Source: Streptomyces sp. CG1
Lineage (GTDB): Bacteria; Actinomycetota; Actinomycetes; Streptomycetales; Streptomycetaceae
Direction: 5' to 3'
NCBI RefSeq assembly: GCF_041080625.1
Contig: NZ_CP163518.1
Location: 1,798,001-1,862,000 of the forward strand
DNA length: 64,000 bases
The position numbers and the translations under genes are program-made. The notes under the pieces are model-generated. The model searched no databases, was not told where the DNA came from, and saw only the letters and a program-made list of their open reading frames with translations. Below, one piece after another: positions 34,612 through 64,000 of the stretch. Numbering within the stretch: the stretch's first letter is position 1; each line of letters starts with the position of its first letter.

Positions 34612-35397
34612 CTAGCCCGGAAGGATTGCCGACGGCCCGCAGAGTGCGGGGTCCTGAGCGAGGATCCGGGCGTGGCAGGCGCGCAGGCCGTGGCCGGGCG
34701 GCACCCCCAACTGTTCGTCAAGCCGACGGCCCACGACTCGAAAGGCTTCCAGTGCCTCACCCTGCCGCCCGGTGCGGTAAAGGGCGAGCATCAACAGCTC
34801 AGAGAAACGTTCCCTGAGCGGAAACTGGGCGACGAGCCGCTGAAGTTCGGGAATTGCCTCGTTCTCACGGCAGGTAGCGAGCCGAGCACTCGCGAGCTCC
34901 TCCAGAACCACTAGGCGGCGCTCCTCGAATAGCGCCGCCGCCCCACGGCAGCGCAGACCGTCGCCGGCATCCAGCAGGGCGGAACCCCTCCAGAGCGACA
35001 GACTCGCCTCCAGAACACGTACAGCACGCTCAAGCCTCTCCCGTAACGCCGCGGTACCTTCGGCGGCCAGGTCCAGGAACCGGTTGCCGTCGATGCACTC
35101 GGGCGGGACAGTCAGCACATAGCCGTTGTGCACCGCTTTGAGCATGCTGGCACCACTCGACCGCCCGGCCACCCGGTCGAGCACCTTGCGCAGCCGGGTC
35201 ACCGTCACCTGAAGGGCGTTCAGCGTGTTCTCCAGCGGGTTGCCGGACCACAGTTCGTCGACCAGCTCTGCATGGGAGATCGCCATTCCCGCCTCGAGAG
35301 CCAAAGTAGCGAGTAGCGCCCTCACCTTATTGGCGCCGATTCCCGCACTGACGCCATCATTCTCCACCGATATCGGGCCCAGCAGATTTATCTCCAT
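34612..35397 (-). CDS. SARP-family pathway activator with a TTA codon
   Basis: The 261-residue protein has the SARP layout: an OmpR-like DNA-binding domain at 1-100 (MEINLLGPISVENDG, ANKVRALLATLALEAGMAISHAELVDELWSG, NALQVTVTRLRKVL) and a bacterial transcriptional activation domain (RFLDLAAEGTAAL to LGVPPGHGLRACHARIL). SARPs such as RedD and ActII-ORF4 recruit RNA polymerase at heptameric repeats in cluster promoters. Codon 118 is TTA (35044-35046), so translation should depend on the bldA leucyl-tRNA. It lies at the left end of the red-type cluster and is its likely activator. It has no ATPase extension. Confidence 0.85.
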   Translation of the reverse strand: MEINLLGPISVENDGVSAGIGANKVRALLATLALEAGMAISHAELVDELWSGNPLENTLNALQVTVTRLRKVLDRVAGRSSGASMLKAVHNGYVLTVPPECIDGNRFLDLAAEGTAALRERLERAVRVLEASLSLWRGSALLDAGDGLRCRGAAALFEERRLVVLEELASARLATCRENEAIPELQRLVAQFPLRERFSELLMLALYRTGRQGEALEAFRVVGRRLDEQLGVPPGHGLRACHARILAQDPALCGPSAILPG

Positions 35398-36240
35398 AAC
35401 GCATCCCCCGTACTGAACTCACCGTCATAGGTGGATCACCGATCGGTCCTGATTCAAGCTGATGCCCGTTCCGCTGCAACTGTGTCGACCAGGGTTCGGC
35501 ATGACGATGTGGCCGGTATTGGCCCTTGCTCGCGTTTGGCCGAGTCTGACAGAAAGCAAGTTCGATGTCATCCAACAACCGGACCGGTCCCACCGCGCAG
35601 CTTGGTCCGCACGGACTCTCCCCTCGTCCATCTGGCGTTGAGTCGCGGAACCCGCCTCTGCAACGTTCGTTGATGAACGGGGCGTATGTTTCCTGGGTGC
35701 GGAATCTCGACTCGGGCTGTTTGTCCGCGTAGGGCAGGTCCATTCCGGCCTCTTCCAGCAAGAGCGACCAGCCACCGGCCCAACCGGAGCGGTCGCCGGT
35801 AGCTGAACCGGCGCTCTACAGGGTCGCCATCGGCCACATGCGCCTCCTCCGACCGACCACCGACCACATGGCCCGGCGCACCACCGAGGGCAAGGTGGAA
35901 TCGGTCCCGGCCTCCGCATTGCGTAAGCCACGAAGGCAGAGCTCGGCACGGCTTCCGCCGACGCCTCCGAAGCGTTGTTCCGTGCCGTTGCACGGATGGC
36001 CGCACCTCTTTGCTACCCCACACCCCCACCCATGCCGGCTCGGGTAACAGTGGCTCCCCAGAAAGGCAGGCAGTCCTCGGTATGAAGTCTCCGAAAAATC
36101 CCTGCCTTGAAGCAAGCCAGGCCCACCCGCGCCAAATACGCTGACCAACGGCGTGATCAAAAGAGGCCGACATTTCGGGGAAGTACAAGCAGACAGCTCG
36201 GGGTGGGCTGGCGGTGAACATCACCGAGTGCTGAAGAAGC

Positions 36241-36285
36241 AGGCCCTGACCAGCGCGTTATTTTCTTTCGACGCTGTCAGGGCCT
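36241..36285. terminator. Hairpin with AT-rich loop between the SARP and MMPL genes
   Basis: AGGCCCTGAC(C)AGCG pairs with CGCTGTCAGGGCCT, 14 pairs with one bulged C, around a 16-nt loop containing TTATTTTC. It could end transcription of the MMPL operon, though it lies 414 bp past that stop, or be an end of a vanished element. Confidence 0.35.
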
Positions 36286-36406
36286 TCGCCGCCTAGGTGG
36301 TGGAAGCTTCCCAGGAACTCCGATGAGATGAGCCTGTCTTGGGGTTCATCGGCAAATCGGTTACTCTCTCCGTCATCCACTGCGCCGTGGAGGCGGTGCT
36401 CGGCTG

Positions 36407-36593
36407 ACGACCGGCGCCACAATCGACACCACCGTCGGCCGCGACTATAACGACCTGCGTAACCCGGCCCGCTGCGGCAACCCGTCCGCAGACGAGGTCA
36501 TGCTCGTCCTCGAAGTTTCCCGAACGCCTCATCCTCAAGGCCAGCCTGCCGCTCGCAAAGTTCGGCGCGCGCCGGCTGACCCACGACATATGA
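36407..36593 (+). pseudogene. Uma2-like nuclease fragment
   Basis: TTGATIDTTVGRDYNDLRNP then NPSADEVMLVLEVSRT in one frame, followed after a shift by RLILKASLPLAKFGARRL, resembles the central part of Uma2-family proteins (restriction endonuclease-like, VxVVEVxSxS then a KxxxYAxxGxxxYWIVD block). No start and no rest of the domain are seen. The assignment is tentative. Confidence 0.3.
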
Positions 36594-36698: not shown

Positions 36699-38885
36699 TC
36701 AGGTCGCGGCGGGTTCCTGGCCGCCCTTGCGGACCGGGACGGACGACTCGCCGTCCTCGGGGACTTCGTCACGCTTGCGGGCCAGGGGGCTCGGCCACCA
36801 GACATGACGGCCGACGTCCAGGTTGAGGGCGATGACCATCACCGAGCGGACGAGGAACGTGTCGAGCAGGATGCCGAAGGCGACGGCGAAGCCCAACTCG
36901 GCGAACTGGGTGAGCGGCAGAGTGCCCAGTACCGCGAAGGTACCGGCCAGCACCATGCCGGCGGAGGTGATGACGCCGCCGGTCACCGCGAGACCGGTGA
37001 TGGTGGCCCGATGGGTGCCGTGACGGCTCGCCTCTTCCCTGATCCTGGTCATCAGGAAGATGTTGTAGTCGATGCCCAGAGCGATCAGGAACACGAAGAC
37101 ATACAGCGGGAAGGACGTGTCCTCGGCCCCGAAGTGGAAGAGGTGGCGGAAGACCAGCGCACTCACGCCGAGCGTGGCCAGACACGACAGTACGACCGTC
37201 GCGGTGAGCAGCAGGGGTGCCACCAGAGCGCGCAGCAGCAGGGCGAGGATGAACAGGATCACCACGAGCACGATCGGAATGATCAGGTTGCGGTCGTTGT
37301 GCGCAGCGGTTTTGGCATCAAGGTGCATGGCAGTGTCACCGCCGACCTGTGCGTGCGCGCCGGGGATGGCATGCAAGGCGTCGCGGGCGTGGTCCACCGT
37401 GCCGAACGCGGCCTTGCTGTCTGCCGGATCGGAGAGGGTGGCCTGCAGATACGCGTCGCCGTCCTTGACCATCGGCTTGGTGACCGTGCTGGCTTCGATG
37501 CCGGGAAGAGCGAGCAGCCGCTCGTGGAGAGCGTCGGCATGGGTGGCGTTGCCGGTGACCACCAGCGGGCTGCCGGCACCCGCGTCGAACTGCTTGGCGA
37601 GGATCGTCTCCCCGCGCACGGAGTCCTGCGAGATGGTGAAGGACTGCTTGTCAGACAGCCCGTTCGAATTGAGCTGCCCGATGCTGATCCCGACGGCGGC
37701 GAGCACGAGAGCCGTGACGACCCAGGTGGTGCGGGGCCGACGGGCGATCCGGTGGCCCAGTGCCGCCCAGCGGCCGGTGGCGTGCGGCTCGGCGCTGCCC
37801 ACCTTCGGCTTGGCAGGCCAGAACACCCAGCGTCCGACGACGATCATGAGCGCGGGGAAGAGGCTGAGCATGGCCAGGGCTCCGACAGCGATGCCGACGG
37901 CGAACACCGGGCCGAGGCCGCGGGTGGAGTTCATGTCCGCGAGCATCAGGCAGACCATGCTCACGGCGACCGTTGAAGCGCTGGCGATGATCGCAGGTCC
38001 GGAGCGGCGCAGGGCCACTGCCATTGCCTCGTGGCGGTCCTGGTGGCGCCTCAGCTCCTCGCGGTAGCGGGCGATGAGCAGCAGCGAGTAGTCGGTGGTC
38101 GCACCGAAGACAAGGATGGTGAGAATGCCCGCGCCGTCCGCACTGACTGTCAGGCCGCCGTGCCTGGCCAGGGCGTAGATGAACGCCTGGGCGACTTCCA
38201 GGGACACCCCGGCGCAGGCGATCGGCATCAGCCACAGGATCGGGCTGCGGTAGGTGGCCAGCAGAATCGCCACCACGACGATCAGGGTGAACAACAGCAG
38301 CGTGGTATCGATGCCGCCGACGGCCTTGCTGAGGTCGGACTCGTAGCCCGCGGGTCCGGTGATGTGCACTGTCAGCCCGTTGTCGCCGTGTGTGGCGACA
38401 GCGCGGACGGAGGCCACGGCGTCCTTGGACTTGTTGAAGTAGTCGGGGCCGAGGTTGAGCGGCACGATCGTCTGGGCGGTGGTGCCGTCCTTGGAGGTGA
38501 TTGGTCCCGCGACGGGGCCGTCCAGGTCGTGCCGGGCGCCGAGCGCTTTGGCGTCGGCCGCGGCCTTCTGGCGGTCCTGAGCGGTCAGCCCGGCAGGCCG
38601 CTGATAGATGACGACCGCAGGCACGGTGTAGGGGGACCCGAACTTCGCCTGGATGTTGAAGACCTGAGTGGACTCGGCGCTGCTGGGCAGTGACGACTTG
38701 ACGTCGTTCTTCTCGGCCCCAGACAGTTTCCCCGCGAACGGGCCGGTGACGGCGAGGATGATGAGCCACAGGCCGATCACTACGTACTTGGTGCGGCGAC
38801 CGGTGATGAAGGCGACGAGCGACCTTCCGCTCGGCGGGGTCGTTCCGTGCCCGGACCGAGAGGTCTGGGGGTGGTTTTCGATCAT
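36699..38885 (-). CDS. MMPL/RND-family exporter of the red-type cluster
   Basis: The 728-residue protein has two repeats of the MMPL layout: a first helix (KYVVIGLWLIILAVTGPFAGKL), a large extracytoplasmic loop, a block of six helices with GATTDYSLLLIARYREELRR, then a second loop and helix block with GIDYNIFLMTRIREEASRHG. The Asp-Tyr pairs in helices 4 and 10 are the proton-relay residues of the family. It lies 60 bp downstream of redY in the same direction, so it is probably cotranscribed with TetR-redX-redW-redY and exports the cluster's product or protects the cell from it. The S. coelicolor red cluster has no such transporter as far as I recall. Confidence 0.85.
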   Translation of the reverse strand: MIENHPQTSRSGHGTTPPSGRSLVAFITGRRTKYVVIGLWLIILAVTGPFAGKLSGAEKNDVKSSLPSSAESTQVFNIQAKFGSPYTVPAVVIYQRPAGLTAQDRQKAAADAKALGARHDLDGPVAGPITSKDGTTAQTIVPLNLGPDYFNKSKDAVASVRAVATHGDNGLTVHITGPAGYESDLSKAVGGIDTTLLLFTLIVVVAILLATYRSPILWLMPIACAGVSLEVAQAFIYALARHGGLTVSADGAGILTILVFGATTDYSLLLIARYREELRRHQDRHEAMAVALRRSGPAIIASASTVAVSMVCLMLADMNSTRGLGPVFAVGIAVGALAMLSLFPALMIVVGRWVFWPAKPKVGSAEPHATGRWAALGHRIARRPRTTWVVTALVLAAVGISIGQLNSNGLSDKQSFTISQDSVRGETILAKQFDAGAGSPLVVTGNATHADALHERLLALPGIEASTVTKPMVKDGDAYLQATLSDPADSKAAFGTVDHARDALHAIPGAHAQVGGDTAMHLDAKTAAHNDRNLIIPIVLVVILFILALLLRALVAPLLLTATVVLSCLATLGVSALVFRHLFHFGAEDTSFPLYVFVFLIALGIDYNIFLMTRIREEASRHGTHRATITGLAVTGGVITSAGMVLAGTFAVLGTLPLTQFAELGFAVAFGILLDTFLVRSVMVIALNLDVGRHVWWPSPLARKRDEVPEDGESSVPVRKGGQEPAAT

Positions 38886-38945: not shown

Positions 38946-39263
38946 TCAGACGGCGAGGTAGCCGGGTTCGATGGGCTCGCCGGTCAACTCATCGACCACG
39001 GATGCGAACTTGGCGAAGCCGTTGCTCAGTTCGCGGAAGACGTCGGTGTCCATGTCACGGCTGAAAGCCTCCCGACTGGTCGCCCAGATGATCTCGAAGA
39101 AGTGGACGGGCGCACTGCTGTCCTCCGAGACCCGGTGCACGGTGAAGGCGTTGACGCTCGGCAGTTGGGGGCACGCGCCGTAGTCGTACTCCCTGACCCA
39201 CGCCTCGAAGTGGGACGGCTCGACTCCCGCGTGCAGTTTGATGCCGTGGACGATGACCTGCAT
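38946..39263 (-). CDS. redY: RedY/HapK-family protein
   Basis: The 105-residue protein begins MQVIVHGIKLHAGVEPSHFEAWVREYDYGACPQLPSVNAFTVHR and continues VHFFEIIWATSREAFSRDM. This matches the RedY/HapK family of dimeric ferredoxin-like fold proteins found in prodiginine clusters (RedY of S. coelicolor, HapK of Hahella). Related family members act as cyclases in other pathways, but the role in prodiginine synthesis is unsettled. The gene lies 22 bp after redW and before the MMPL gene. The X-W-Y gene order matches S. coelicolor. Confidence 0.8.
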   Translation of the reverse strand: MQVIVHGIKLHAGVEPSHFEAWVREYDYGACPQLPSVNAFTVHRVSEDSSAPVHFFEIIWATSREAFSRDMDTDVFRELSNGFAKFASVVDELTGEPIEPGYLAV

Positions 39264-39285: not shown

Positions 39286-40485
39286 TTAGGGCACGCGGAC
39301 CGGGCGGCGGCCCAGTCCGAGTGCTCGGGCGATGTTGTTGCGCTGGATTTCGTTGCTGCCGGAGAAGATCCGGGACGGCAGGGCGTCGCAGAGGAGGGTT
39401 TCGGCCTCCCCTTCGATCACTCCCATGCCGCCGCGGAGCTGGACCGCGTCCAGTCCGATCCGGACCGCGGCCTCGCTGACGGCGATCTTGGCCAAGGCGG
39501 GCGCGACGGTGTCGTCGCTGCCGCGGGCGAGCCCCGCGGCAGCCTTGTAGAGCAGCAGCCGGGCCGACTCGTAGGCCAGAGTCATGTCCACGATGCGGTG
39601 GCTGACCGCCTGGAAACTGCCGATCGGTGCGCCGAACTGCTCCCGCGCCCTGACGTGCTGGACGGTGCTGTCCAGGAGGCGCTTCATCGCACCGACATAG
39701 GCGGCGAACAGGCAGGTCCGCTCCCAGTTCATGGACGCGGTGAAGACGCCCGCGCCGCCGCCGGGCGAGCCGAGCACCTGGTCGGCGGGCACCACGCAGT
39801 TGTCGAAGTGCACCTCGGCCATGGGCGAACCGCGCAGCCCGGCCTTGCGTTCGGGGGCGCCGACGGTCAGGCCGGGAGTTCCAGCCGGCACGATGAAGGA
39901 GGTCAGCCCGAAGATGCCGCCCCCGGGCCGGGTGGCAGCCTGGACGAGGAAGACGTCCGCAACCGGCGCATTGGTGGTGAAGCATTTGCCACCGTTGAGG
40001 AGATAGCTCCCGTCGTCGCCCCGTTCGGCCCTGGTACGCAGGCTGAGCGCGTCGGAGCCTGACTCCGGTTCGGTGATGGCGTGCGCGGCGATGTGCTCGC
40101 CGGAGCACATCGCCGGCAGCCACCGCTGCTTCTGTTCCTCGGAGCCGAAGTCGACGATGGGCAGCAGGCAGGCGAACTGGTGGGCGGCCATCGAGAAAAC
40201 GAAACCGGTGTCAGGGCAGCCCTCGCCGACGGCCTCGATGAGCGCGGTGGTGGCGACCGCGTCGAGTCCGCCGCCGCCGTAACGGGTGGGCACGGAAGTG
40301 GCGACCAGGCCGTGGCCGGCGGCGATCTGCCACTGGTGGCGGAAGACGTCGGGCGAGAAGCCGTGGCCACGGCCCGGTGATACGTCGTCACCACTGCTGG
40401 CATCCGTGCCCGCGAGCTTGTTCTGCGCGAAGCGCCTGACGGAGCGGGCCATCTCTTCTGTGTCCGCGTCGAGTTCGAAGTTCAT
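39286..40485 (-). CDS. redW: Prolyl-carrier protein dehydrogenase (acyl-CoA dehydrogenase family)
   Basis: The 399-residue flavoprotein has the acyl-CoA dehydrogenase signatures [22 protein letters not shown] and a C-terminal [24 protein letters not shown], with [11 protein letters not shown] before it. RedW/PigA homologues oxidise L-prolyl-S-carrier protein to pyrrolyl-2-carboxyl-S-carrier protein in two steps, the first committed step of the bipyrrole branch. ATG 40485 overlaps the redX stop (ATGA); the open frame upstream lies inside redX. The substrate would be prolyl-RedO (61766-62026). Length and motif order are normal. Confidence 0.85.
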
Positions 40486-43319
40486 CCGGAACCGTCCAAG
40501 TGTTCTTCGACGAGCAGGTGGTAGTTGATGCCGCCGGTGCCGAACGAACTCACTCCCGCGCGCCTGGGGTGACCAGGCCGGGTATGCCACTCGACGGGGC
40601 GGTCGGGCACCATGGCGGGGATGGCGTCCAGGTCCAGCGAGGGCTCGGGGGTGTCGAGATTGGTGTGCGGGGGCAGGGTGCCTGCCCGGATCGCGAGGAG
40701 GACCCTCAGCAGGCCGGCGGCCCCCGCAGCGGCGAAGGTATGGCCGAGGAAGGACTTCGCCGAGCCGATGTGCAGTGGCTGCCGACGCCGAGGGGTGCCG
40801 TACGTAGCGGCCGTCGCGGCCACCTCCACGCGGTCGCCGACCCGGGTGCCGGTGCCGTGCGCCTCCAGGTAGTCAACGGCCCCCGGGTCGAAGCCCACTT
40901 GGCCGAAGGCGTCCCGGATGGCGCGCGCCTGGCCTTCGGTGTCCGGTGCGATGAGCGACTTGGCGTCGTTGGAGGCGCCGATGCCGCACAGGACCGCGTG
41001 AACGATGTCGCCGTCGCGGACCGCGTCCCGAAGTCGCTTCAGAAGGAAGAGCCCGCATCCGTCGCCGGGGGTGAACCCATCCGCGGACCGGTCGAACGGC
41101 GTGATCCTGCTGTGCGAGAGCAGCCCGAGTGCCGAGCACAGGATCATGTCCCTTGGGTTGCAGGGCAGTTCGACGCCGCCCGCCAGCGCGAATTCCGCGG
41201 CGCCGGAGCGCAGCGCGGTGATCGCCACATCCAACGCAGCCATCGACGACGCGCACGCGGCCTCGACAGCCATCGGTACCGCGGCCAACCGGTACTCGTT
41301 GGCGAGCACTGCGGCAACCCCGCTGGCCAGACAGCCGTCGGGGTCGGCGGGGCCGAGCGGGGGGACCTGCCCGGCGCACCGGCTGCGCGCCTGAGCTGCC
41401 AGCGTCTTCCTTTCCTGGCTGGGCAGTTCGGCGAGTGCCGCCAGTTCCTCGACGGCAGCCTCCAGGTCGTCCGCGCACAGCGCCGCGTTGAGCAGCCGTT
41501 CCCGGGTCAGGCAGAGGTTGCTACCGACGGCAACGATGCCGTGACCGGCCAGTACAGGTCCTGGACCACCGCGGAGACCTTCTGAGCTACGACGGCTCAG
41601 GAACTGTGCGGCCACCGTAAGAGTGAGCCGCTGGGCCGGGTCCATCGCTGCCCACCGCGCCGGGGTGACGGGAACTCCGTCCGGTGGTTCTCTCGGCGGT
41701 GCCATCCAGGCGCCCAGGTCGGTGTAGGTGTGGCTGAGGCTCAGCGCTCCGGGCGCGTGGTGCAGGCGGCGTTCGAGTACCTCGCGCGGTAAGGGGGCGA
41801 AGCGGTCACGGCCGGAGATAAAGGTCTGCCAGAGGCTGTGAGGGTCGGGCGAGCCGGCGAAGGCACCGCCGTAAGCGACCACCGCGATCGGCTCCGCGGC
41901 GGCCGCCTGCGGCGGCTGAACCGCGCCGTGTCGGGCACGGCTCGCGTCGTACTCCTCCACGACGAGGTGAGCGACCGAGCCGGTGAGCGAGGTGCCGCCC
42001 AGGACGGCACGACGCGGCCCCCCGCCGATGCCGGCCGGCCAAGGCCGGGCTTCGGGCAAGGTATGGAAGACGGAGCCGGCCAGGTCCAACGGGCGGCTTC
42101 CGCGCGGCGCCCAGTGCGGCGGCAGCCGTCGGTGGTACAGGGCGAGCGCGACCTTGGTCAGGCTGGCGAGGCCGCTGTTGGCGAAGGTGTGGCCGAGCCG
42201 GTCGCGGACGCTGCCGACAGCGACCGAACCGAGCGTCGACTGCGGCAACAGCCCATTCAGCGCGCCGAGTTCAGCCGCCGTGACACCGGCGACGCCGGTG
42301 CCGGAGCATTCGACGTACTGCGGGGCGCATCCCCGCTGGGACAGGGTCCGGTCGGCGGCGCGGGCTGTGCGCTCGTGCAGTAGGGGCGAGACGGAGTAGC
42401 GGAAGGTGCCGGGGCGCGGGTCGTGGCCCAGGGCGCAGCCGCGGACCAAGGCGTAGATCCGGTCACCGTCGTGTACCGCGGTGGACAGCCGCTTGAGCAG
42501 CACCGCGCCCACGCCTTCGCCCAGCGGGTAGCCCTGGCCCTCCTCCTCGAGCGGGTGGACACAGTCGGCGCCCAGTCCCTTGGCGGCCAGGGCCCGGCCG
42601 GGCAGCGGCCCTTCGTCCGCCTGCCCGGCCAGCACCAGCACGGCGTCGGACCCGCCGCAGCGTAGGGCGCTGACCGCATGGGCGAGCAGGGCGTACGAGG
42701 TCAGGTCGGCGGACTCCACAGCCATGGTGCGGCCGCGCAGCCCGAAGACGCCGGCGATCCTGGCGGGGATGGTGCTGGCCATCTCGCCGACCCTGTCGTG
42801 CGGTGACTCCCCCAGAGTGCGGCGCATTACCGCCGCCAGTTCCTCGCCCGCTGCGGCTGCGGCCCCTCGGGTGTCGGCGAAGTCCGACTCCTCTGCCGAG
42901 GCGCGCAACTCGTCGGCGTAACGAGTGGCTTCAACCCGGCGGGCGTTGGCGTACTGCCGATCGAGGCCGAAGCAGACGCCGGCCAGCACGTCCGTACGGT
43001 CGCTGGGCAGGGGGCGTTCTGCGTAGCCGGCGTCGGTGAGACAGTGCCGAGCCGCTTCGAGCATCAGCTTCTGCATCGCTGCCATGGAGCCGGCTTGCGC
43101 CGGGGGGATGCCGTAGCGCGAGACATCGACGCTCTCGGGATCCAGGCCGGCAGCCGGGTGGGCCGACGTGCAGGCGCAGCCGGGGGCCGGCTCCAGCATC
43201 AGGGACCAGAAGGCGTCGACGCCCTGGGCCTGCGGGTACAGGGCCGAGATACCCACGATCGCGACAGGCTCCGGGTCCGTCCCCCTGTCGTCCGGGAGCG
43301 GATCGGTTAAGGAGCTCAT
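40482..43319 (-). CDS. redX: Fused ketosynthase pair for bipyrrole assembly (dead KS then live KS)
   Basis: The 945-residue protein contains two ketosynthase domains. The first (about 18-440) lost its active site: the usual TACSSS position reads [11 protein letters not shown] and EAHGTGT reads ECSGTGV. The second (about 470-940) is intact: [11 protein letters not shown] with Cys near 690, [11 protein letters not shown], and [11 protein letters not shown]. This is the RedX/PigJ layout. The enzyme transfers the pyrrolyl group from RedO and condenses it with malonyl on the RedN carrier domains. ATG 43319 follows AGGAGTG. Codon 4 is TTA (43308-43310), giving bldA control right at the start. It overlaps redW by 4 bp. 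Confidence 0.8.
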
Positions 43320-43383: not shown

Positions 43384-44019
43384 TCAGCCAGGGGCCGGGC
43401 CCGATGCCGGACGGCCGGATCCCTCTGGGTCACTCGGGGCGGGGCCGAGCGGCAGACCGAGCAGGCGCTGCAGCGGGCCCTCCAGCCGCACCTCGGCGAG
43501 CCTGGGGTCGATCATGCGGTGAAGCAGCAGGCCGTCGATCGCCGCGCCCATGAGCAGGGCAGTTCCATCGGAGTCCTGCGTATTGCCATTGGCTGCCAGC
43601 CAGCCGGCGACGGCCGAGCGCCATCGGCCGAGCAGGTCGGTCAGTCCGGCCCGCAGTCGCTCGTTGCGAGTAGCGGCGAGGATCATCTCCGTGCTGAGGA
43701 CGGCCGCGTCCTGGTCCACGGAGTAGGCGGCCAGTCCGGCCATCACCTGCCCCACTCCCTCGGGCCCCTGCGAGGCTCCGGCCAGCATCTCCAGCAGTTG
43801 TTCGACCTCCCGCCTCACCGCGCGCAGCGAGGCGTCGACCAGCAGGTCGGTGACGGTACTGAAGTGGTAGTGCACAAGCCCTGGGCGAAGCCCCGCCTGG
43901 GCAGCGACCTTGCGGGTGGTGACCGCCCCCCAGCCCTCCTTGACGATCAGCCGCACGGCGGCTTCGTAGAGGCGTGCGCGGGTCTCCTCACCGCGCTCTG
44001 CCGACGTGGCGGCCATCAT
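43384..44019 (-). CDS. TetR-family regulator of the redX-MMPL operon
   Basis: The 211-residue protein has a TetR N-terminal helix-turn-helix (ETRARLYEAAVRLIVKEGWGAVTTRKVAAQAGLRPGLVHYHFSTVTDLLVDA) and an all-helical ligand domain. It is the first gene of the group TetR, redX, redW, redY, MMPL, with 64 bp to redX. A perfect 24-bp palindrome lies 85 bp upstream of its start. TetR regulators next to MMPL exporters commonly repress them until the exported compound binds. No TetR gene of this kind is in the S. coelicolor red cluster as I know it. Confidence 0.85.
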   Translation of the reverse strand: MMAATSAERGEETRARLYEAAVRLIVKEGWGAVTTRKVAAQAGLRPGLVHYHFSTVTDLLVDASLRAVRREVEQLLEMLAGASQGPEGVGQVMAGLAAYSVDQDAAVLSTEMILAATRNERLRAGLTDLLGRWRSAVAGWLAANGNTQDSDGTALLMGAAIDGLLLHRMIDPRLAEVRLEGPLQRLLGLPLGPAPSDPEGSGRPASGPAPG

Positions 44020-44097: not shown

Positions 44098-44103
44098 GGC
44101 TAA

Positions 44104-44127
44104 TGACCAAGGCGAACGCCTTGGTCA
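44104..44127. promoter_or_regulatory. 24-bp perfect palindrome, probable TetR operator
   Basis: The arms TGACCAAGGCG and CGCCTTGGTCA flank a central AA. Size and symmetry suit a TetR dimer. It lies between redG and the TetR gene, where it would cover the promoter of the TetR-redX-redW-redY-MMPL operon. Confidence 0.65.
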
Positions 44128-49091: not shown

Positions 49092-49919
49092 TCACGTCCG
49101 GGTGGTGGTCAGCGCTTCGGGGGCCCGAAGCGGGGCGACGCGGTCGAGTTCGGCGCGCAGCTCGCGCAGCAGACGAAGGCGGGAGGGACCGGTGAGATAG
49201 AAGTGGCCGCCCGGCAGGTGTCTGCGCAGCAAAGAGCCATCGGTGTACTCCCGCCAGGCGTCCATTTGTTCGGTGGTGGCGATCGGGTCGCCGGCCGCGG
49301 AGAAGGCGGTCATCGGGCAGTTCAGCGGCGCCCTGGGCTCCCACCGGTAGTTCTCACAGGCGGCCAGGTCGGCACGCAGTACCGGCAGTCGGCGTTCCAG
49401 GTAGGCCCGGCCCATGGCCTCGTCCGCGCCGAGTCCGCCGAGTTCGGCCACCAGGCGGCGCAGCCCGTCGTCGTCCAGCGAGCGGCGCATCGGCACGCCG
49501 TAATGGTGGGGGGCCCGGCTGCCCGAGACGAACAGGTGCTTCGGCTCCCGGGCACCGAGCACGCGTAGCCGACACGCCGTCTCGTAGGCGAGGAGAGCTC
49601 CCATACTGTGCCCGAACAGCACGTAGTTGTCGGCGAGTCCGCACCCCAGCAGAGCCTCCGCGGCGTCCTGGGCGAGCGACGCCATCACGCGGTACGGCTC
49701 CTCGCTCATCCGCAGACCCCGGCCGGGCAGGAGCACGGCCACCACCTGGACCCGCTCTCCCAGTCGGGCGGCCCAGTCGTGGTAGACCGACGGGGTGCCG
49801 CCCGCATGCGGGAAGCAGATCATGCGTACCGCACCCGACCGTGGTCTGCTGTCCCCGTGGAACCAGCGCTCCGGGAGCCGCTGCCCGGTTGCTGTGACGG
49901 CTCGTTCAGTGACCGGCAC
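49092..49919 (-). CDS. redJ: Type II thioesterase
   Basis: The 275-residue alpha/beta hydrolase has the GrsT-type fold with VRMICFPHAGGTPSVYHDWA, nucleophile Ser105 in LFGHSMGALLAYE, and the C-terminal catalytic His in GGHFYLTG. In S. coelicolor RedJ releases dodecanoate from RedQ for use by RedL. GTG 49919 follows GGAAAGGGAC. It follows redL after an 89-bp gap, the longest gap in the operon between redP and redG, so an internal promoter is possible. Confidence 0.8.
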   Translation of the reverse strand: MPVTERAVTATGQRLPERWFHGDSRPRSGAVRMICFPHAGGTPSVYHDWAARLGERVQVVAVLLPGRGLRMSEEPYRVMASLAQDAAEALLGCGLADNYVLFGHSMGALLAYETACRLRVLGAREPKHLFVSGSRAPHHYGVPMRRSLDDDGLRRLVAELGGLGADEAMGRAYLERRLPVLRADLAACENYRWEPRAPLNCPMTAFSAAGDPIATTEQMDAWREYTDGSLLRRHLPGGHFYLTGPSRLRLLRELRAELDRVAPLRAPEALTTTRT

Positions 49920-58078: not shown

Positions 58079-59733
58079 TCCGGCCTCCTGGGGGCGGTGC
58101 CCACGCTCGCGGCCAGTCGGTGGTAGTCGATCTTCCCGTTGGGGCTGTGCGGCAGCTCCTCCAGGCACTTCGCGACCCGCGGCACCATGTACGCGGGCAG
58201 GTACTCGGCGCAGTACTGCTTGATCTCCAGCAGGCCGGGCCGGGTCGCCCCCGGGGCCAGGGTGTAGCAGGCGAGGATCCCGGCCTGGGCGCCGTCGCCG
58301 GTGACCACGACGCCGGCGTCGCCGACAGCCGGGTGCCGCACCAGCACCGCCTCGATCTCACCGAGTTCGACGCGATAGCCGTTGAGTTTCACCATCCTGT
58401 CCTTGCGGCCTCGGTAGACGAGACTGCCGTTCTCGTAACTCACCAGGTCGCCGGTGGCATGGCGGCCTTCGTGGTGCCCGGCTGCCTCGGATGCGGCCTC
58501 GCGGCCCCAGTACCCCGGGGTGACACAGTCGCCCTCGATGATGAGCTCTCCCACGACGTCCGTCCCGGGGCCGTCCTGGCCGTCGGCGTGCAGGACGCGG
58601 GCCCGGACGCCGGGCAGCGGCACGCCGATCGGCACGGGCTCGGTGCGGGCGGTGTCCTCCGGCCGGACCCGGTGGTAGGTGCAGACGTTGGTCTCGGTCG
58701 GGCCGTAGAGGTTGTAGAGCACCGTCGACGCGGGCAACCTGGCGACCGTCTCGCGCAGTTGCGGGATCGGGAACACCTCGCCCGCGAAGAGCACGTAGCG
58801 CAGCCCTGCCGCGGTGTCGGGGGTGAGCGCGCCGGACACCGTGAGCAGGTTGAGCACCGACGGCACCGAGTACCAGACGGTGACGCCGTGGTCGCGGATG
58901 CCCTGGGCGAGCGCGTTGACGTCACGGGTGCGTGCGTCCTCGACGATCCATACGGCCGCGCCCACGGAGATCGCCGTGAACAGGTCGAAGGTGCTCAGGT
59001 CGAAGTTGAAGGACGCGTGATTGGCGAACACGTCGTCGGGTCCGACGTCCAGTTCGGCGCGTGCCCACCCGACGAAGGCGGTGAGATTGCGGTGCGTGAT
59101 GCGCACGCCTTTGGGCACACCAGTGGATCCGGAGGTGTAGAGAAGCGCGGCGAGGTCGTCCGGCTCTGGCTCCCGCCTGACAACACTTCTCTCTCCGCGA
59201 GTCGCGAAGTCCTCCCAGGCCAGCGCCTCGGGGCCGGAGTCGCCGGGCGGCTTCGTCAGGCGGTCCGTACTGGGGCCCCGGGCAGCTCCTGCGACGACCA
59301 GCACCCGTACGGAGAGTGGGAGTTCGGTGATGTTGAGCTTGCCGAAGGTCTGCATGTCGGTAAAGAGAGCGATGGGCTCGGCGTCATGCAGGATGTGCGC
59401 GACCCGGCTGCTGGGCTGCCCCGCGTCGAGCGGCACATACGCGCAGCCGGCCTGCAGGACGGCGAGGATCGCCTCGGCATACCGCGGGCCCTTGTCCATC
59501 CAGATCGCGATCCGCTCGCCGGTCGCGACGGCGCCCCGCAGCCGGGTCAGGGCGGCGGCCAGATCGTCCACCCGCTCCTTGAGTTCGCCGTACGTCACCG
59601 GGGTGCGCCCGGCGAAGGCGGTCCTGGCTGCCTGCGCGTCAGTGAGTTCTGCCGGCAGCAGGAGGAACGAGGGCACATCGGCCGACGGAGCGACGGCGGT
59701 GTGCGTCGCGTCGGAGCTGGTCGTCGTGTTCAC
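58075..59733 (-). CDS. redM: L-prolyl-AMP ligase loading the carrier protein RedO
   Basis: The 552-residue protein is an NRPS-type adenylation enzyme with core motifs LLYTSGSTGVPKGVRITHRN, NFDLSTFDLF, YNLYGPTETNVCTYH, GDLVSYENGSLVYRGRKDRMVKLNGYRVELGEIE and the C-terminal Lys in NGKIDYHRLA. RedM/PigI activate L-proline and load it on RedO/PigG. It stands alone without a carrier domain, as in other red clusters. GTG 59733 overlaps the redN stop (GTGA) and its stop overlaps redL (ATGA). Pro specificity is taken from context, not from a residue code. Confidence 0.85.
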   Translation of the reverse strand: MNTTTSSDATHTAVAPSADVPSFLLLPAELTDAQAARTAFAGRTPVTYGELKERVDDLAAALTRLRGAVATGERIAIWMDKGPRYAEAILAVLQAGCAYVPLDAGQPSSRVAHILHDAEPIALFTDMQTFGKLNITELPLSVRVLVVAGAARGPSTDRLTKPPGDSGPEALAWEDFATRGERSVVRREPEPDDLAALLYTSGSTGVPKGVRITHRNLTAFVGWARAELDVGPDDVFANHASFNFDLSTFDLFTAISVGAAVWIVEDARTRDVNALAQGIRDHGVTVWYSVPSVLNLLTVSGALTPDTAAGLRYVLFAGEVFPIPQLRETVARLPASTVLYNLYGPTETNVCTYHRVRPEDTARTEPVPIGVPLPGVRARVLHADGQDGPGTDVVGELIIEGDCVTPGYWGREAASEAAGHHEGRHATGDLVSYENGSLVYRGRKDRMVKLNGYRVELGEIEAVLVRHPAVGDAGVVVTGDGAQAGILACYTLAPGATRPGLLEIKQYCAEYLPAYMVPRVAKCLEELPHSPNGKIDYHRLAASVGTAPRRPE

Positions 59734-61769
59734 CGGCCGGCCCACCGTTCCCCGGCGCCGGGCATTGCGGTGTCCCGACCGCGGGCGGGCAGCACACCGG
59801 TTTCCCGCCCCGCGTCCTCGAAGATCTGCGCCGCCTCGTCAAGATCCTGCGGGGTGTGCTCACTTGTGACACTGATCCGCAGGCGAGCATCGCCGAGCCC
59901 GACCCCGGGAAAGACCACGGTCTGGCAGAACAGGCCACGGGCCCGAACGGCGCGGCCCATCTCCATCGCCCTGCGCTCGTCGCGGATGACGATGGGCAGG
60001 ATCGCGCTGTCGGTGTTCTCCAGGTCGAAGCCGGTGTCCCGCAGCCGACTGCGCAGGGTGCGGATGTTGGACCAGAGCCGGGCGATCCGCTCGGGCTCCC
60101 TCTCGATCACGTCGATGGCAGCGATCAGCCCGGCGGCGATGCCGGCGGGGATGGTCGCGGCGAAGACGTAGGAGTGGGCGTAGAAGCGGAGGTACTCGAT
60201 GACGTCCTCGTCGCCGACGACGAAGCCGCCCATCCCGGCGAGGGTCTTGCTCATGGTGCCGAGTTCGAGGTCTACCTCGCCCTTGAGACCGAAATGCTCG
60301 GTGGTACCGGAGCCGCGGGCGCCGAGTACGCCGGTTGAGTGCGCGTCATCGATCAGTACGCGGGCGCCGTACTGCTTGGCCAGCCGCACGATGCCCGGCA
60401 GGTTGCACACGTCACCGTGCATGCTGAATACACCGTCGGCGACGATGAGCTTGCCCGCCAACTGGTCGGGGCAGCGTTCCAGTACCCGCTGCAGATCGGC
60501 CATGTCGTTGTGCTGGTAGATCTTGCGGACGCCGCCGGAGATCCGGGCACCGTCCACGATGCTCATGTGGTTGTACTTGTCGACCACAACCGCGTCGTAG
60601 CTCTTGACCAGGGCGGAGATCGCGCCGAGGTTCGCGGAGTAGCCGCCCGGAAAGACGATGCAGGCGGGGCGCTGTTTGAAGGCGGCCAGCCGCCGTTCGA
60701 GTTCCTTGTGCAGCACGTTGGTGCCGCCGATGAGCCGGCAGCCGGTGTTGGTGGCGCCGTATACGCGGGTCGCGTCGCAGATCGCGTCGATGACCTTGGG
60801 GTGGTTGGCGAGACCGAGGTAGTTGTTCGAGGCGAACATGAGGTATTCGCGGGTACGCCCGGTGAGTTCGTCCTGGATGACGGCCCGGTTCTCGCACCGC
60901 GACTGCAGCGGCATGCCGTACCAGTACAGCTGCTCGTCCTCGCGCCGGCGCAGGTAGCCGCGGAAGCTGCGGACCTTGGCGAAGAGGTCGGAGTCGCGCT
61001 CCTCGGTGAAGTCCCGCATCGACCGGTCGTCCCAGGGCCCGTCGGTGGCCGACACCGTGGGTGCCTGCTCGGACGGGCGCCGCGCAGGATCCGGTGCCGG
61101 CAGCCGTGTGGGCGCCGGACGGTGTGCGTGCTCGGCGCGTTGAACGGGCACGGAGCCGGGTTCCGCGGACTGCGGGGGTGCGGTGTCCGGGGCTGATCCG
61201 GCGAGTGCGGCGCCCAGGCTGCGCAGAGTGGTCGCCGAGATGTTCTGCGTCTGTGCGGTGGGTCCGTCGATCTCACGGGACACCTCTGCGACGATGGAGG
61301 CCAGGACCACGGAGTCGATGCCGAGCTCGCCCTCCAGGTCGGCATCGGGATCCAACTGGTGCCGCTGGTACTGGGTGTGGCGCATCGCCACGTCGAGCAG
61401 CAGGTCCATGACCGTGTCTCGGCTCCGGGCATTCCGCTCGGGACCATCGCCGACCGGACGGCCGTCGGCCGGACGGTTGGCGCGCTCGACTGCCTGGACC
61501 AAGTCGCCGATGGTGGGTGGCGCGGCGGGCAGCTCGACGGTGATGCCGAACTGGTCGCGCACCGCGGCAAGTATGGACTCCATGATGACCGAATCGATGC
61601 CGAGCTCGCCCTCGAAGTGGCTCTCCAGCAGAAGCTGTTCGTGGTCGTAGAGGGTGTACCTGGCAATGATGTCCACGATGCGCAGGTAGGTCTCCCCGGC
61701 CGTGGTCCCGGAGGCCGCCGCGGCGGAGGGCTGGTCGGACCGGGCACTGCCGGTCAGGGTCTCCGTCAT
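59730..61769 (-). CDS. redN: Tandem carrier protein-oxoamine synthase for the bipyrrole branch
   Basis: The 679-residue protein has two carrier domains, each with GELGIDSV (Ser60 and Ser153), a linker, and a PLP-dependent alpha-oxoamine synthase domain (about 265-660; SNNYLGLANHP, DDAHSTGVLG, and the PLP lysine in GTMSKTLAGMGG). This is the RedN/PigH layout. Malonyl on the carriers is condensed by RedX with the pyrrolyl unit, and the C-terminal domain then condenses the product with serine to give 4-hydroxy-2,2'-bipyrrole-5-methanol. ATG 61769 overlaps the redO stop. Confidence 0.85.
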   Translation of the reverse strand: MTETLTGSARSDQPSAAAASGTTAGETYLRIVDIIARYTLYDHEQLLLESHFEGELGIDSVIMESILAAVRDQFGITVELPAAPPTIGDLVQAVERANRPADGRPVGDGPERNARSRDTVMDLLLDVAMRHTQYQRHQLDPDADLEGELGIDSVVLASIVAEVSREIDGPTAQTQNISATTLRSLGAALAGSAPDTAPPQSAEPGSVPVQRAEHAHRPAPTRLPAPDPARRPSEQAPTVSATDGPWDDRSMRDFTEERDSDLFAKVRSFRGYLRRREDEQLYWYGMPLQSRCENRAVIQDELTGRTREYLMFASNNYLGLANHPKVIDAICDATRVYGATNTGCRLIGGTNVLHKELERRLAAFKQRPACIVFPGGYSANLGAISALVKSYDAVVVDKYNHMSIVDGARISGGVRKIYQHNDMADLQRVLERCPDQLAGKLIVADGVFSMHGDVCNLPGIVRLAKQYGARVLIDDAHSTGVLGARGSGTTEHFGLKGEVDLELGTMSKTLAGMGGFVVGDEDVIEYLRFYAHSYVFAATIPAGIAAGLIAAIDVIEREPERIARLWSNIRTLRSRLRDTGFDLENTDSAILPIVIRDERRAMEMGRAVRARGLFCQTVVFPGVGLGDARLRISVTSEHTPQDLDEAAQIFEDAGRETGVLPARGRDTAMPGAGERWAGR

Positions 61770-62026
61770 CGAGCCGCTCCTTCGGCCTGCCGCAGCCGTT
61801 CGACCAGCGAGGCGATCGACTTGACGGTCTCGAAGTTCTCCGGGACGACCTGGTTCAGGGGCACGGTGATCCCGTAGGTGCCCTGCAGGTGGTGAACGAG
61901 GTCGAAGATCGCCGCGGAATCGATGACGTTCAGCTCGGTGAGCGACACGTCCGCGTCCAGTCCTTCGGCATCGCCGTCCAGCCATGCGTCGGCGATGTGA
62001 GTGATCAGTGCCTGCTGAATGTTCAT
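61766..62026 (-). CDS. redO: Peptidyl carrier protein for proline
   Basis: The 86-residue protein is a free-standing carrier protein with the phosphopantetheine Ser37 in LNVIDSAAIFDLVHHL. It carries L-proline, then pyrrole-2-carboxylate. The frame is open to 62080; ATG 62026 gives the usual RedO length and start (MNIQQALITHIADAW), although its ribosome site is weak. It overlaps redN by 4 bp and follows redR after 71 bp. Confidence 0.8.
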   Translation of the reverse strand: MNIQQALITHIADAWLDGDAEGLDADVSLTELNVIDSAAIFDLVHHLQGTYGITVPLNQVVPENFETVKSIASLVERLRQAEGAAR

Positions 62027-62097
62027 GGCGTTCTCGGTCTCGCTTTCCTGGAAAGTGCTGACGTCTCTGTCCCGCGACACCCACCGCGGCCGGGGGC

Positions 62098-63348
62098 CTA
62101 CGCGGCGGTGAAGACCAGGACCGCGTTCTGGCCGCCGAATCCGAAGGAGTCGCTCACCGCGACCTGCATGTTTTTGTGTCGGGGATGTCCGGCGACGATG
62201 TCGAGGTCGATCTCTGGGTCCTGCTTTTCGAGGTTGGCCGTCGGCGGCACGGTCGAGGTCTGCAGTGCCAGCACGCTGAAGGCCGCCTCGATGGCGCCGG
62301 CGGCTCCGAGGGTGTGGCCTACCACGCCCTTGGTGGAGGTGACGACGGGCCGGTCACCGAAGACCGACCGCAGTACCCTGGCCTCCGCCGCGTCGTTGAG
62401 GGGCGTCGAGGTGCCGTGCGCGTTGACGTGGTCCACCTCGTCAGGTGCCACACCGGCCTGCGCCAGCGCGGTCAGCATGGCCTGGCGCACGCCGGTGCCC
62501 GCCGGGTCCGGCGCTGTGATGTGGTGCGCGTCGGCCGAGGCTCCGTATCCGGCGACGCGGGCCCGGACCGTGGCGCCGCGAGCCCGGGCGTCCGCCTCGC
62601 GTTCGAGGATGAGGATCCCGGCGCCCTCCCCCGTGACGAAGCCGTCCCGGTCGGCGTCGAAGGGCCGGGAGGCGGCGGAAGGGTCGTGAGTTCGCCGGGA
62701 GAGGGCCCCCATCCGGGTGAAGCCGGTCACGATCAACGGACTGACAGCGGCCTCGCCCCCTCCGGCAATCACCACATCGCAGATGCCGTCACGCAGTAGG
62801 TGCAGCGCCGTTCCGATCGCAGTCGCCCCGGATGCGCAGGCTGTGCTGGTGACGAGGTTGGGCCCGGTGGCACGGAACTCCATGGCCAGGTGACCGGCCA
62901 CCATGTTGGGCACCAGCAGCGGGATCAACAGCGCCGACACCGCCTGCGGGCCCTTGTCCAGCATGGTCCGCAGCTGCCCCTCGCCCGAGGAGGCGCCGCC
63001 GACACCGCAGCCAATGACGACACCGACCCGCCCGCCGTCCCAGGTCAGCGGATCCAGGCCGCAGTCGGACACCGCCTCACGTGCCGCAGTGATGGTCAGC
63101 TGCACGAACCGGTCGTGGACCAGCCGGCTGCGCCGCCCCACGTGCCGGGCCGGGTCGAATCCGGGCACTGTGCAGGAGATGTCCACCGGCAGCCCGGCGA
63201 GCACCGGGTCCCGTCGGCACACGGACGTGCCCGCGCACACACCCTGCCAGCTGGCCTGCGTGCCGATGCCCGCGGCGGTGACCAGACCGAGACCTGTGAC
63301 CGCGATGGGCGGGACGGCGCGGCCGTTGACCGCCGGGGCGACGGTCAT
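62098..63348 (-). CDS. redR: 3-oxoacyl-ACP synthase II (FabF type) for the alkyl chain
   Basis: The 416-residue ketosynthase has Cys171 in STACASGA, HGTST (His near 308) and GHTLGAAG (His near 345), the intact FabF triad. With RedP and RedQ it builds the dodecanoyl (or similar) chain using primary fatty-acid reductases. The start ATG 63348 overlaps the redQ stop. Transcription order here is P, Q, R and then O. Confidence 0.85.
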   Translation of the reverse strand: MTVAPAVNGRAVPPIAVTGLGLVTAAGIGTQASWQGVCAGTSVCRRDPVLAGLPVDISCTVPGFDPARHVGRRSRLVHDRFVQLTITAAREAVSDCGLDPLTWDGGRVGVVIGCGVGGASSGEGQLRTMLDKGPQAVSALLIPLLVPNMVAGHLAMEFRATGPNLVTSTACASGATAIGTALHLLRDGICDVVIAGGGEAAVSPLIVTGFTRMGALSRRTHDPSAASRPFDADRDGFVTGEGAGILILEREADARARGATVRARVAGYGASADAHHITAPDPAGTGVRQAMLTALAQAGVAPDEVDHVNAHGTSTPLNDAAEARVLRSVFGDRPVVTSTKGVVGHTLGAAGAIEAAFSVLALQTSTVPPTANLEKQDPEIDLDIVAGHPRHKNMQVAVSDSFGFGGQNAVLVFTAA

Positions 63349-63599
63349 GACGTCCCGGCCGCGGCGTTCACCTGTTCGGATATCAGCTCCACGGCCCGCT
63401 CCAGCGAGTCGCGGGGGGTCGCGGTGTCCTCGCTGATCTCCACGCCCACCTCCGACTGGATGACCAGCAGAAGTTCGACGAGGAACAGGGAGTCCACCTC
63501 CAGTTCCTCGAAGGTGACACCGGGCCGGATCTTGGCGGCGTCCACCTCGAACCGGTCCACCAGCAGTTCGGCCAGCCGGTCATACGTCAACGTTCGCAT
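63345..63599 (-). CDS. redQ: Acyl carrier protein for the alkyl chain
   Basis: The 84-residue protein is an ACP with phosphopantetheine Ser37 in LEVDSLFLVELLL and a D/E-rich surface. It would hold the growing fatty chain made by RedP and RedR, which RedJ then releases. It is tightly coupled to redR through ATGA. The gap to redP is 87 bp. Confidence 0.85.
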   Translation of the reverse strand: MRTLTYDRLAELLVDRFEVDAAKIRPGVTFEELEVDSLFLVELLLVIQSEVGVEISEDTATPRDSLERAVELISEQVNAAAGTS

Positions 63600-63686
63600 T
63601 GCTCCGCTGTCCTCTCGTCATCGTCGTCGTCTCGTCGTCCCCGGCGGTCCCCGCGCATGGACGCGAGCGCCGTGCGGCTCCCTTAG

Positions 63687-64000
63687 TCAGCCGATCGGCA
63701 GCTGCGGCCAGGTGAGTACGGCCGAGCCCCAGGTCAGGCCGCCGCCGAAGGCGGTGAGCAGCAACCGCTCCCCAGCCGCGATCCGGCCCGCGGCGTGCGC
63801 GTGGTCCAGGGCCAGCGGTATCGAGGCGGCGGCCGTGTTGCCCACCTCGGCGATGTTGCCGACGCAGCGTTCGGGGGCGATGCCCAGTTCGTGGGCGAGC
63901 GCCTTGAGAATCCGCAGGTTCGCCTGGTGGCAGACCAACCGGTCCACGTCCCCCGGAACCCGGCCGGCGCGGTCGAGCGCGGACCTCGCCGACTCCCGCA
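63687..64000 (-). CDS. redP: 3-oxoacyl-ACP synthase III (KAS III), C-terminal part, cut by the window edge
   Basis: Only the last 103 or so codons are inside. They hold two of the three catalytic residues of FabH enzymes: His in CHQANLRIL and Asn in VGNTAAASIP, followed by the canonical GERLLLTAFGGGLTWGSAVL end. RedP starts the alkyl chain from acetyl-CoA and malonyl-RedQ. The active-site Cys and the start lie beyond 64000, as may redU, redV, redF and other missing genes. Confidence 0.85.
   Translation of the reverse strand, partial: RESARSALDRAGRVPGDVDRLVCHQANLRILKALAHELGIAPERCVGNIAEVGNTAAASIPLALDHAHAAGRIAAGERLLLTAFGGGLTWGSAVLTWPQLPIG

What the first reader, a model, noticed from the sequence alone, without database searches (positions are those of the whole stretch)
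34612..64000. A prodiginine-type cluster with a different layout from the S. coelicolor red cluster
Fourteen genes match Red enzymes by domain order and catalytic motifs: P, Q, R, O, N, M, L, J, I, H, G, X, W and Y. All lie on one strand. Relative to S. coelicolor (established order D-X-W-Y ... R-Q-P-O-N-M-L-K-J-I-H-G-F), the X-W-Y block has moved downstream of G, separate redK is gone, a TetR gene and an MMPL exporter are added, and F, V and U are not in the window. A single Rieske enzyme suggests a cyclic prodiginine.
Basis: partly seen in the sequence, partly recalled or inferred. Interest (0 to 1): 0.8.

Follow-up and report, generated by a model that had tools for sequence, protein, structure and literature searches.

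The report
Catenulispora-type red pigment gene cluster
This Streptomyces stretch carries a nearly complete set of genes for a red prodiginine pigment whose order and sequences match those of distant relatives (Catenulispora, Actinomadura) better than those of ordinary Streptomyces, and its likely ring-closing enzyme belongs with that of a strain known to make an unusual cyclic pigment.

Summary
In detail: P-Q-R-O-N-M-L-J-I-H-G and X-W-Y homologues lie on one strand, with TetR and MMPL genes. Corrections: redK is not lost but fused to the C-terminus of RedL, a fusion already published for a metacycloprodigiosin producer (PMC8102152) and seen in 54 of the 120 listed relatives; redU, redV and redZ lie just right of the window; RedF has no match in this genome, as published for MBK6. 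The layout is not unique: two Catenulispora genomes show P-Q-R-O-N-M-LK-J-I-H-G-TetR-X-W-Y-MMPL. A tree of five proteins places the cluster with Catenulispora and Actinomadura; keeping it among Streptomyces is rejected, so horizontal transfer is likely. Its RedG falls in a group (100/100 support) with Actinomadura sp. BRA 177, a cyclononylprodigiosin producer, and not with McpG or S. coelicolor-type RedG; 36 positions distinguish the group from three others, among them Asp156 where 78 of 97 sequences have Glu. Most likely it makes a cyclic, cyclononyl-type prodiginine; chain length and ring position are inferred. A new variant of a known kind, of moderate interest.

The parts
34612..35397 (-). 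redD-like SARP activator; TTA codon at position 118
   Evidence: BTAD and Trans_reg_C; TTA
36699..38885 (-). MMPL-family exporter
   Evidence: PF03176; 67% to Catenulispora NH11 MMPL in the same place
38946..39263 (-). redY (REDY/HapK family)
   Evidence: PF11639, 1.8e-39
39286..40485 (-). redW, L-prolyl-PCP dehydrogenase
   Evidence: NF045652 just over its cut-off
40482..43319 (-). redX, tandem ketosynthase; by motif the first KS lacks the active-site Cys; TTA at codons 4 and 510
   Evidence: (PigJ model matched at 371 bits, below its 900-bit cut-off)
43384..44019 (-). TetR-family regulator
   Evidence: PF00440, PF17940; 60-62% to TetR in the same place in four Catenulispora-group loci, two of them NL8 and NH11
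44104..44127 (.). perfect palindrome TGACCAAGGCGTTCGCCTTGGTCA in the redG-tetR gap; candidate TetR operator
   Evidence: only exact copy of its 18-bp core in the window
44184..45278 (-). redG-type Rieske oxygenase (candidate ring-closing enzyme)
   Evidence: PF00355; fold; group
45275..48016 (-). redH, MBC-alkylpyrrole ligase
   Evidence: NF052632 over its cut-off
48023..49081 (-). redI, O-methyltransferase
   Evidence: 59-72% to RedI in the actinobacterial loci
49092..49823 (-). redJ, type II thioesterase
   Evidence: PF00975
50009..58078 (-). redL-redK fusion: AMP ligase, carrier domains (one without the Ser), KS, AT, carrier, oxoamine synthase, NAD-dependent dehydrogenase
58075..59733 (-). 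redM, proline adenylation
   Evidence: AMP-binding domains; substrate by homology
59730..61769 (-). redN, two carrier domains plus oxoamine synthase
61766..62080 (-). redO, prolyl carrier protein
   Evidence: PP-binding; 65% to Catenulispora RedO
62098..63348 (-). redR, ketosynthase II
63345..63599 (-). redQ, carrier protein
63687..64000 (-). redP, ketosynthase III (continues to 64751; beyond the window on the plus strand: DUF6206 65365-66255, redU 66252-67073, redV 67080-68321, redZ 68606-69289)

Best explanation
A nearly complete actinobacterial prodiginine cluster of the Catenulispora/Actinomadura lineage in a Streptomyces genome, probably gained by horizontal transfer. Shown by sequence: RedM/O/W/X/N/I/V homologues for the bipyrrole half (MBC), RedP/Q/R/J and the RedL-RedK fusion for the alkylpyrrole half, RedH to join them, RedG to oxidise, RedU to prime carriers, RedD and RedZ homologues to activate, TetR and MMPL for regulated export. 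Inferred: L-prolyl-RedO is oxidised by RedW, condensed by RedX and RedN and finished to MBC; RedL builds an alkyl-pyrroline that the fused RedK domain oxidises to the pyrrole; RedH ligates; RedG closes a carbocycle by C-H activation of the alkyl chain, giving a cyclononyl-type cyclic prodiginine. TetR is predicted to repress its own tetR-X-W-Y-MMPL unit through the palindrome before tetR, and to be released by the product or an intermediate. Part estimates: prodiginine cluster 0.97; Catenulispora/Actinomadura lineage 0.9; cyclic product 0.75; cyclononyl-type rather than metacyclo- or streptorubin-type 0.45; TetR autoregulation 0.5.
For: Domains and curated models. Order matches Catenulispora NL8/NH11. 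Tree of H, I, J, K, L (23 rows, 3926 columns): window with Catenulispora (100 SH-aLRT), So13.3 (99), then Actinomadura (100); AU tests reject a Streptomyces-only group, p 4e-60 with So13.3 and 2e-10 without. RedG grouped with BRA 177 at 100/100 in 42 rows; joining the window RedG alone to the McpG clade rejected, p 4e-5. BRA 177 makes cyclononylprodigiosin (PMC8342005 passages: HRMS 364.2382) and, by review, methylcyclooctyl- and nonylprodigiosin (PMC10951976 passage); its genome has one RedG match at E <= 1e-40. Rieske Cys/His, H159, H164 and D300 kept. Palindrome-like repeats in the same gap of four Catenulispora-group loci.
Against: No product, expression or activity data for this strain. 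No paper read ties the BRA 177 pigment to this gene cluster; the link is one Rieske match in that genome. A clade need not fix the product: S. tauricus SL01 was reported to make streptorubin B (PMC13136089, passage) while S. tauricus RedG (P0285) sits in the McpG clade, though those pigments are isomers (recalled). Nearest RedG relatives in Streptomyces (So13.3, rectiverticillatus) have no product known to me. Catenulispora and window repeats are similar in letters, not identical. RedF is missing, as in MBK6.
Confidence: 0.7

Rival explanations
1. The cluster makes metacycloprodigiosin or streptorubin B (undecyl chain, ring closed onto the C-ring pyrrole) like other Streptomyces, in spite of its divergent RedG.
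For: The core pathway homologues are shared with those clusters; the L-K fusion and missing redF also occur in the metacycloprodigiosin producer MBK6 (PMC8102152). A C9 ring closure on an undecyl chain would give metacycloprodigiosin (recalled chemistry).
Against: RedG only 49-56% identical to those two clades and outside both with strong support; 36 diagnostic positions, with Asp156 for Glu in the iron-binding motif.
Confidence: 0.3
2. RedG is MarG-like and the product is a premarineosin-type spiroaminal.
For: MarG and PmaG are Rieske enzymes that bicyclise 23-hydroxyundecylprodiginine (PMC12680612, passages and section 6). One of two Rieske proteins of a MAR4 strain (P0302) falls next to the window group, on a long branch.
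Against: No gene for 23-hydroxylation was recognised, though none was searched for by sequence; MarG itself could not be placed, its sequence not being reached here; the P0302 join is a long-branch join and P0302 has Glu, not Asp, at position 156.
Confidence: 0.08
3. Only linear prodiginines are made: RedG is inactive on the native substrate or poorly expressed.
For: Linear congeners accompany cyclic ones in producers (PMC10951976, PMC8102152 passages).
Against: RedG is intact, overlaps redH by 4 bases and has all metal ligands.
Confidence: 0.15
4. The lineage is an old Streptomyces-resident paralogue, not a transfer.
For: A second Streptomyces (So13.3) branches in the same group; cluster GC 69.8% equals the window's 70.0%.
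Against: Catenulispora is the sister of the window, with So13.3 outside the pair (midpoint root); of 392 Streptomyces genomes sampled 19 hold RedH, this one included, and among the loci of the other 18 the RedG is 47-55% identical in 17 and not seen in one.
Confidence: 0.2

Closest known systems
Catenulispora pinistramenti NL8 / C. pinisilvae NH11 clusters (public genomes, L013, L014, L130, L131)
   Same: NL8: V-U-DUF6206 divergent from P-Q-R-O-N-M-LK-J-I-H-G-TetR-X; NH11: M-LK-J-I-H-G-TetR-X-W-Y-MMPL; RedG 77%
   Different: in NH11 redZ lies after MMPL and a redD-like match is on the other strand; in the window redZ follows redV and redD is on the operon strand
Actinomadura sp. BRA 177 (cyclononylprodigiosin producer) and A. 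spongiicola clusters (L034, L134, L024)
   Same: L-K fusion, G directly before X-W-Y, RedG 77% and 75%
   Different: no TetR between G and X; D follows Y, and in A. spongiicola P-R follow D; an MMPL only about 30% alike lies beyond V in both, with a 28% TetR seen in A. spongiicola only
Streptomyces sp. MBK6 / S. griseoaurantiacus and S. longispororuber metacycloprodigiosin clusters
   Same: L-K fusion and no redF in MBK6 (PMC8102152)
   Different: RedG 51-55% identical and in another clade; MBK6 cluster described as essentially collinear with S. coelicolor
S. coelicolor red cluster (stand-in: Streptomyces G246, separate 2297-aa RedL and RedK; S. coelicolor itself was not fetched)
   Same: same core enzyme set, DUF6206, U, V, Z, D
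   Different: D-X-W-Y apart from P...G, R-Q divergent from P, separate K, redF present, no TetR/MMPL in the operon

Membership tests
Actinobacterial prodiginine (red-type) cluster | RedH-type ligase | tested here: met
   NF052632 1579 bits over 1350
Actinobacterial prodiginine (red-type) cluster | MBC branch: RedM, O, W, X, N, I | tested here: met
   RedW over cut-off; others by domains and 44-72% blast identity to actinobacterial clusters. RedX matches the PigJ model below its cut-off.
Actinobacterial prodiginine (red-type) cluster | Alkylpyrrole branch: RedP, Q, R, L, K, J | tested here: met
   K is fused to L
Actinobacterial prodiginine (red-type) cluster | RedU, RedV, RedZ, RedD | tested here: met
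   47%, 46%, 39% to G246 U, V, Z right of the window; SARP gene in the window
Actinobacterial prodiginine (red-type) cluster | RedF | tested here: not met
   0 matches in own genome at E <= 1e-5; of 15 genomes searched 4 match, 3 strongly (one of them the source of the query) and one at 30%; also absent in MBK6 (PMC8102152), so not a defining feature
S. coelicolor red layout | D-X-W-Y separate from P-G; R divergent from P | tested here: not met
   6 of 6 ordinary Streptomyces clusters mapped have it, the window does not
Metacycloprodigiosin-type (McpG) | RedG in the McpG clade | tested here: not met
   (AU p 3.6e-5)
Cyclononylprodigiosin-type (Actinomadura) | RedG in the group of BRA 177 | tested here: met
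   100/100
Cyclononylprodigiosin-type (Actinomadura) | nonyl chain and ring position of the product | not testable with these tools
   needs chemistry
Marineosin-type | MarG-like RedG, MarA, MarE | not tested
   mar sequences were not fetched; section 6 of PMC12680612 read

The most novel reading that the evidence does not exclude
The window RedG and its Actinomadura/Catenulispora kin are a separate class of prodiginine carbocyclase that closes the ring from the chain to a different site than RedG or McpG, perhaps across to the far (A-ring) pyrrole as in the macrocycle nonylprodigiosin, using an Asp in the iron-binding motif where 78 of 97 aligned RedG homologues have Glu; the fused RedL-RedK hands the pyrroline on within one chain. 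The A-ring structure is recalled, with only the words 'tris-pyrrole macrocyclic pigment' seen in PMC4660986.
Probability: 0.3. Interest if true: 0.6.

Novelty: new variant of a known kind. Interest (0 to 1): 0.36.

Why it matters
RedG-type enzymes forge C-C bonds at unactivated C-H positions, and which residues set the ring position is a live question. This group gives a compact test: intact relatives with 36 fixed or nearly fixed differences, several next to the iron ligands in sequence, and a producer strain (BRA 177) with a known product. It also suggests that a whole prodiginine pathway with its own regulator and exporter moved between distant actinomycetes.

Tried and rejected
Loss of redK: rejected, it is fused to redL. 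A unique rearrangement in this strain: rejected, Catenulispora shares it. A second Rieske gene like RedG in the genome: none at E <= 1e-40. RedF elsewhere in the genome: none at E <= 1e-5. A known domain in the 1.3-kb gap between redD and MMPL: three minus-strand frames there, and one left of redD, have no Pfam match at E <= 0.01; plus-strand frames were not scanned. Further copies of the TetR palindrome core before other operons: besides the exact one only three matches with three mismatches (4 found, 0.9 expected, 1 of 100 shuffles reached 4). Papers on Catenulispora prodiginines or a BRA 177 cluster: none seen in the listings (5 of 1,171 listed; 5 of 5; 7 of 7; 15 of 159; 10 of 11); this library lacks most subscription journals, and the prodiginine Chem. 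Rev. article is not held. The class-wide sample held only 2 of 394 genomes with the enzyme, this one included, too few to map the group.

Rows dropped: in the 89-row RedG tree eight of the 93 proteins were left out beforehand (the three most distant and five shorter ones) and four were added; one search used 42 rows chosen from the named clades, without the long-branch rows; one search used 47 rows of five clades, and its diagnostic positions were required to differ from three of the other four; one search used all 93 plus four. The concatenated tree used 23 clusters, So13.3 without I and J. One search was run while checking this report; it confirmed Asp156 as the sharpest difference and showed that Pro161 is less specific (30 of 97 rows have it).
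Full report
WHERE IT LIES. The window is bases 1,798,001-1,862,000 of an 11.04-Mb contig of an 11.1-Mb genome. I take it as a Streptomyces.

THE GENES. On the minus strand, read 5' to 3': redP (64751-63687), Q (63599-63345), R (63348-62098), O, N, M, L-K, J, I, H, G, tetR, X, W, Y, MMPL (36699) and, after a 1.3-kb gap, redD (35397-34612). Six neighbouring pairs among them overlap by 4 bases (coordinates), as in an operon. RedH and RedW pass curated models for undecylprodigiosin ligase and prolyl-PCP dehydrogenase, RedW narrowly. RedY is of the REDY/HapK family.

REDK IS FUSED TO REDL. The RedL frame (50009-58078) is 2689 aa from its ATG: AMP ligase, carrier domains, KS, AT, carrier, oxoamine synthase, then an NAD-dependent epimerase/3-beta-HSD domain. 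That domain is 66-77% identical to RedK, fused or separate, in 16 loci. Motifs GxxGxxG and YxxxK are kept. Of the 120 best listed relatives of the C-terminal part (572 found), 54, the window's own protein included, carry the dehydrogenase domain and 66 do not (counted from the listing, which favours fused proteins because the query spans the fusion). The fusion and the loss of redF were described for Streptomyces sp. MBK6, which makes metacycloprodigiosin and undecylprodigiosin (PMC8102152; passages and section 18 read). These two points are therefore not new.

BEYOND THE WINDOW. On the plus strand, divergent from redP: a DUF6206 gene (65365-66255), redU (66252-67073, phosphopantetheinyl transferase), redV (67080-68321, nitroreductase family) and redZ (68606-69289), at 67, 47, 46 and 39% identity to the homologues of Streptomyces genome G246. 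RedF has no match in the genome.

LAYOUT COMPARED. In 6 of 6 ordinary Streptomyces clusters mapped on 53 kb each, the order is D-X-W-Y, then Z, V, U, DUF6206 and R on the other strand, then P-O-N-M-L(-K)-J-I-H-G; my simple gene caller missed a few genes (such as redV in G225, redU in G351, redY in G007 and redJ in G364). L and K are fused in 4 of the 6. In Catenulispora NL8 the order is V, U, DUF6206 (divergent), P-Q-R-O-N-M-LK-J-I-H-G-TetR-X, where the contig ends; in NH11 it is M-LK-J-I-H-G-TetR-X-W-Y-MMPL-Z with a redD-like match on the other strand. Together this is the window's layout, apart from the places of Z and D. Actinomadura spongiicola has G-X-W-Y-D-P-R without TetR in between; BRA 177 has G-X-W-Y-D on one contig and P-R on another.

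LINEAGE. A tree of RedH, I, J, K and L from 23 clusters groups the window with Catenulispora (SH-aLRT 100), So13.3 (99) and Actinomadura (100), apart from 17 other clusters of Streptomyces or Streptomycetaceae. AU tests reject all 19 Streptomyces-side rows as one group (p 4e-60), and also the same group without So13.3 (p 2e-10). Of 392 Streptomyces genomes sampled, 19 including this one hold RedH; among the loci of the other 18, 17 show a RedG at 47-55% identity and one shows none. Transfer from a Catenulispora-like donor, or from an unsampled relative, explains this best. GC does not mark it as foreign (69.8% against 70.0%).

THE RIESKE ENZYME. RedG has the Rieske ligands C47-H49 and C66-H69 and the iron ligands H159, H164 and D300 (assigned by motif). 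The predicted structure (mean pLDDT 89.3) matches Rieske oxygenases, SxtT first (Foldseek E 4e-22), as expected. In an 89-row tree it sits in a 17-row group (SH-aLRT 97) with So13.3, S. rectiverticillatus, Catenulispora, Actinoallomurus and Actinomadura; in a 42-row bootstrap tree the group (13 rows) has 100/100 support, and joining the window RedG alone to the McpG clade is rejected (p 4e-5). The group includes Actinomadura sp. BRA 177, from which cyclononylprodigiosin was isolated (PMC8342005, passages) along with methylcyclooctyl- and nonylprodigiosin (PMC10951976, passage); that genome has one RedG match at E <= 1e-40. In 47 rows of five clades, 36 positions are fixed or nearly fixed in this group (14 rows) and absent from three others (McpG, S. 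coelicolor-type and verticillate-type), while some recur in the fourth (S. griseoviridis-type). The sharpest is Asp156 in the DxxHxxxxH motif: over all 93 homologues plus four added rows, 17 of 97 have Asp, all in or next to this group (one group member, the odd P0322, has Ala), 78 have Glu and one has a gap. Val162 (or Ile) between the two His ligands, Gly176-Trp177 and Glu297 near Asp300 are also largely group-specific; Pro161 is not, 30 of 97 having it.

MECHANISM. Steps shown by sequence are the enzyme set and the fusion. Inferred steps follow the red pathway as generally known (recalled): MBC from proline, malonate and serine; the alkylpyrrole from a fatty acyl starter on RedL with oxidation by the K domain; joining by RedH; oxidative carbocyclisation by RedG. 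The chain length (nonyl as in BRA 177, or undecyl) cannot be read from sequence. TetR and MMPL: the gap before tetR holds a perfect 24-bp palindrome at 44104-44127, and the same gap in four Catenulispora-group loci holds similar CCAAGGC and CGCCCAA/CGCCTAA repeats; tetR, X, W, Y and MMPL follow closely on one strand, so a product-released repressor over its exporter is a reasonable proposal, not shown.

AGAINST. No product of this strain is known. Clade-to-product mapping is not airtight: S. tauricus SL01 is reported to make streptorubin B (PMC13136089, passage), yet S. tauricus RedG (P0285) is in the McpG clade. MarG and PmaG could not be placed. That nonylprodigiosin's chain spans rings A and C is recalled; PMC4660986 (passage) says only that it is a tris-pyrrole macrocyclic pigment made by ring-closing metathesis.

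VERDICT. A real, nearly complete prodiginine cluster of a Catenulispora/Actinomadura type in Streptomyces. Layout and fusion are not unique; the separate RedG group with its iron-motif difference is the most interesting part.

Noticed in passing
window 69683-70735 (right flank; L009:5683-6735) and G000:C1:1870411-1870660: An IS-like DDE transposase gene sits right beside redZ; 250 bp spanning its upstream side and first codons recur 100% identical and inverted about 1.65 kb beyond it, with a patatin-like gene (71096-71926) between. It may mark the edge of the acquired segment.
   Followed up: partly
window 50009-58078, residues about 625-720 of RedL: An extra carrier-like stretch before the first KS lacks the phosphopantetheine Ser (LGVDY); Catenulispora RedL has LGLDY in the same place (by motif).
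   Followed up: partly
window 44057-44097 (redG-tetR gap): Next to the palindrome is a 16-bp-stem hairpin (CCAGCTGGTTGCCCTG...CAGGGCAACCAGCTGG) before tetR; role unknown.
   Followed up: no
   Followed up: no
G000:C1:531816-551048: A very large NRPS (8075-aa open frame) with six condensation-domain matches.
   Followed up: no
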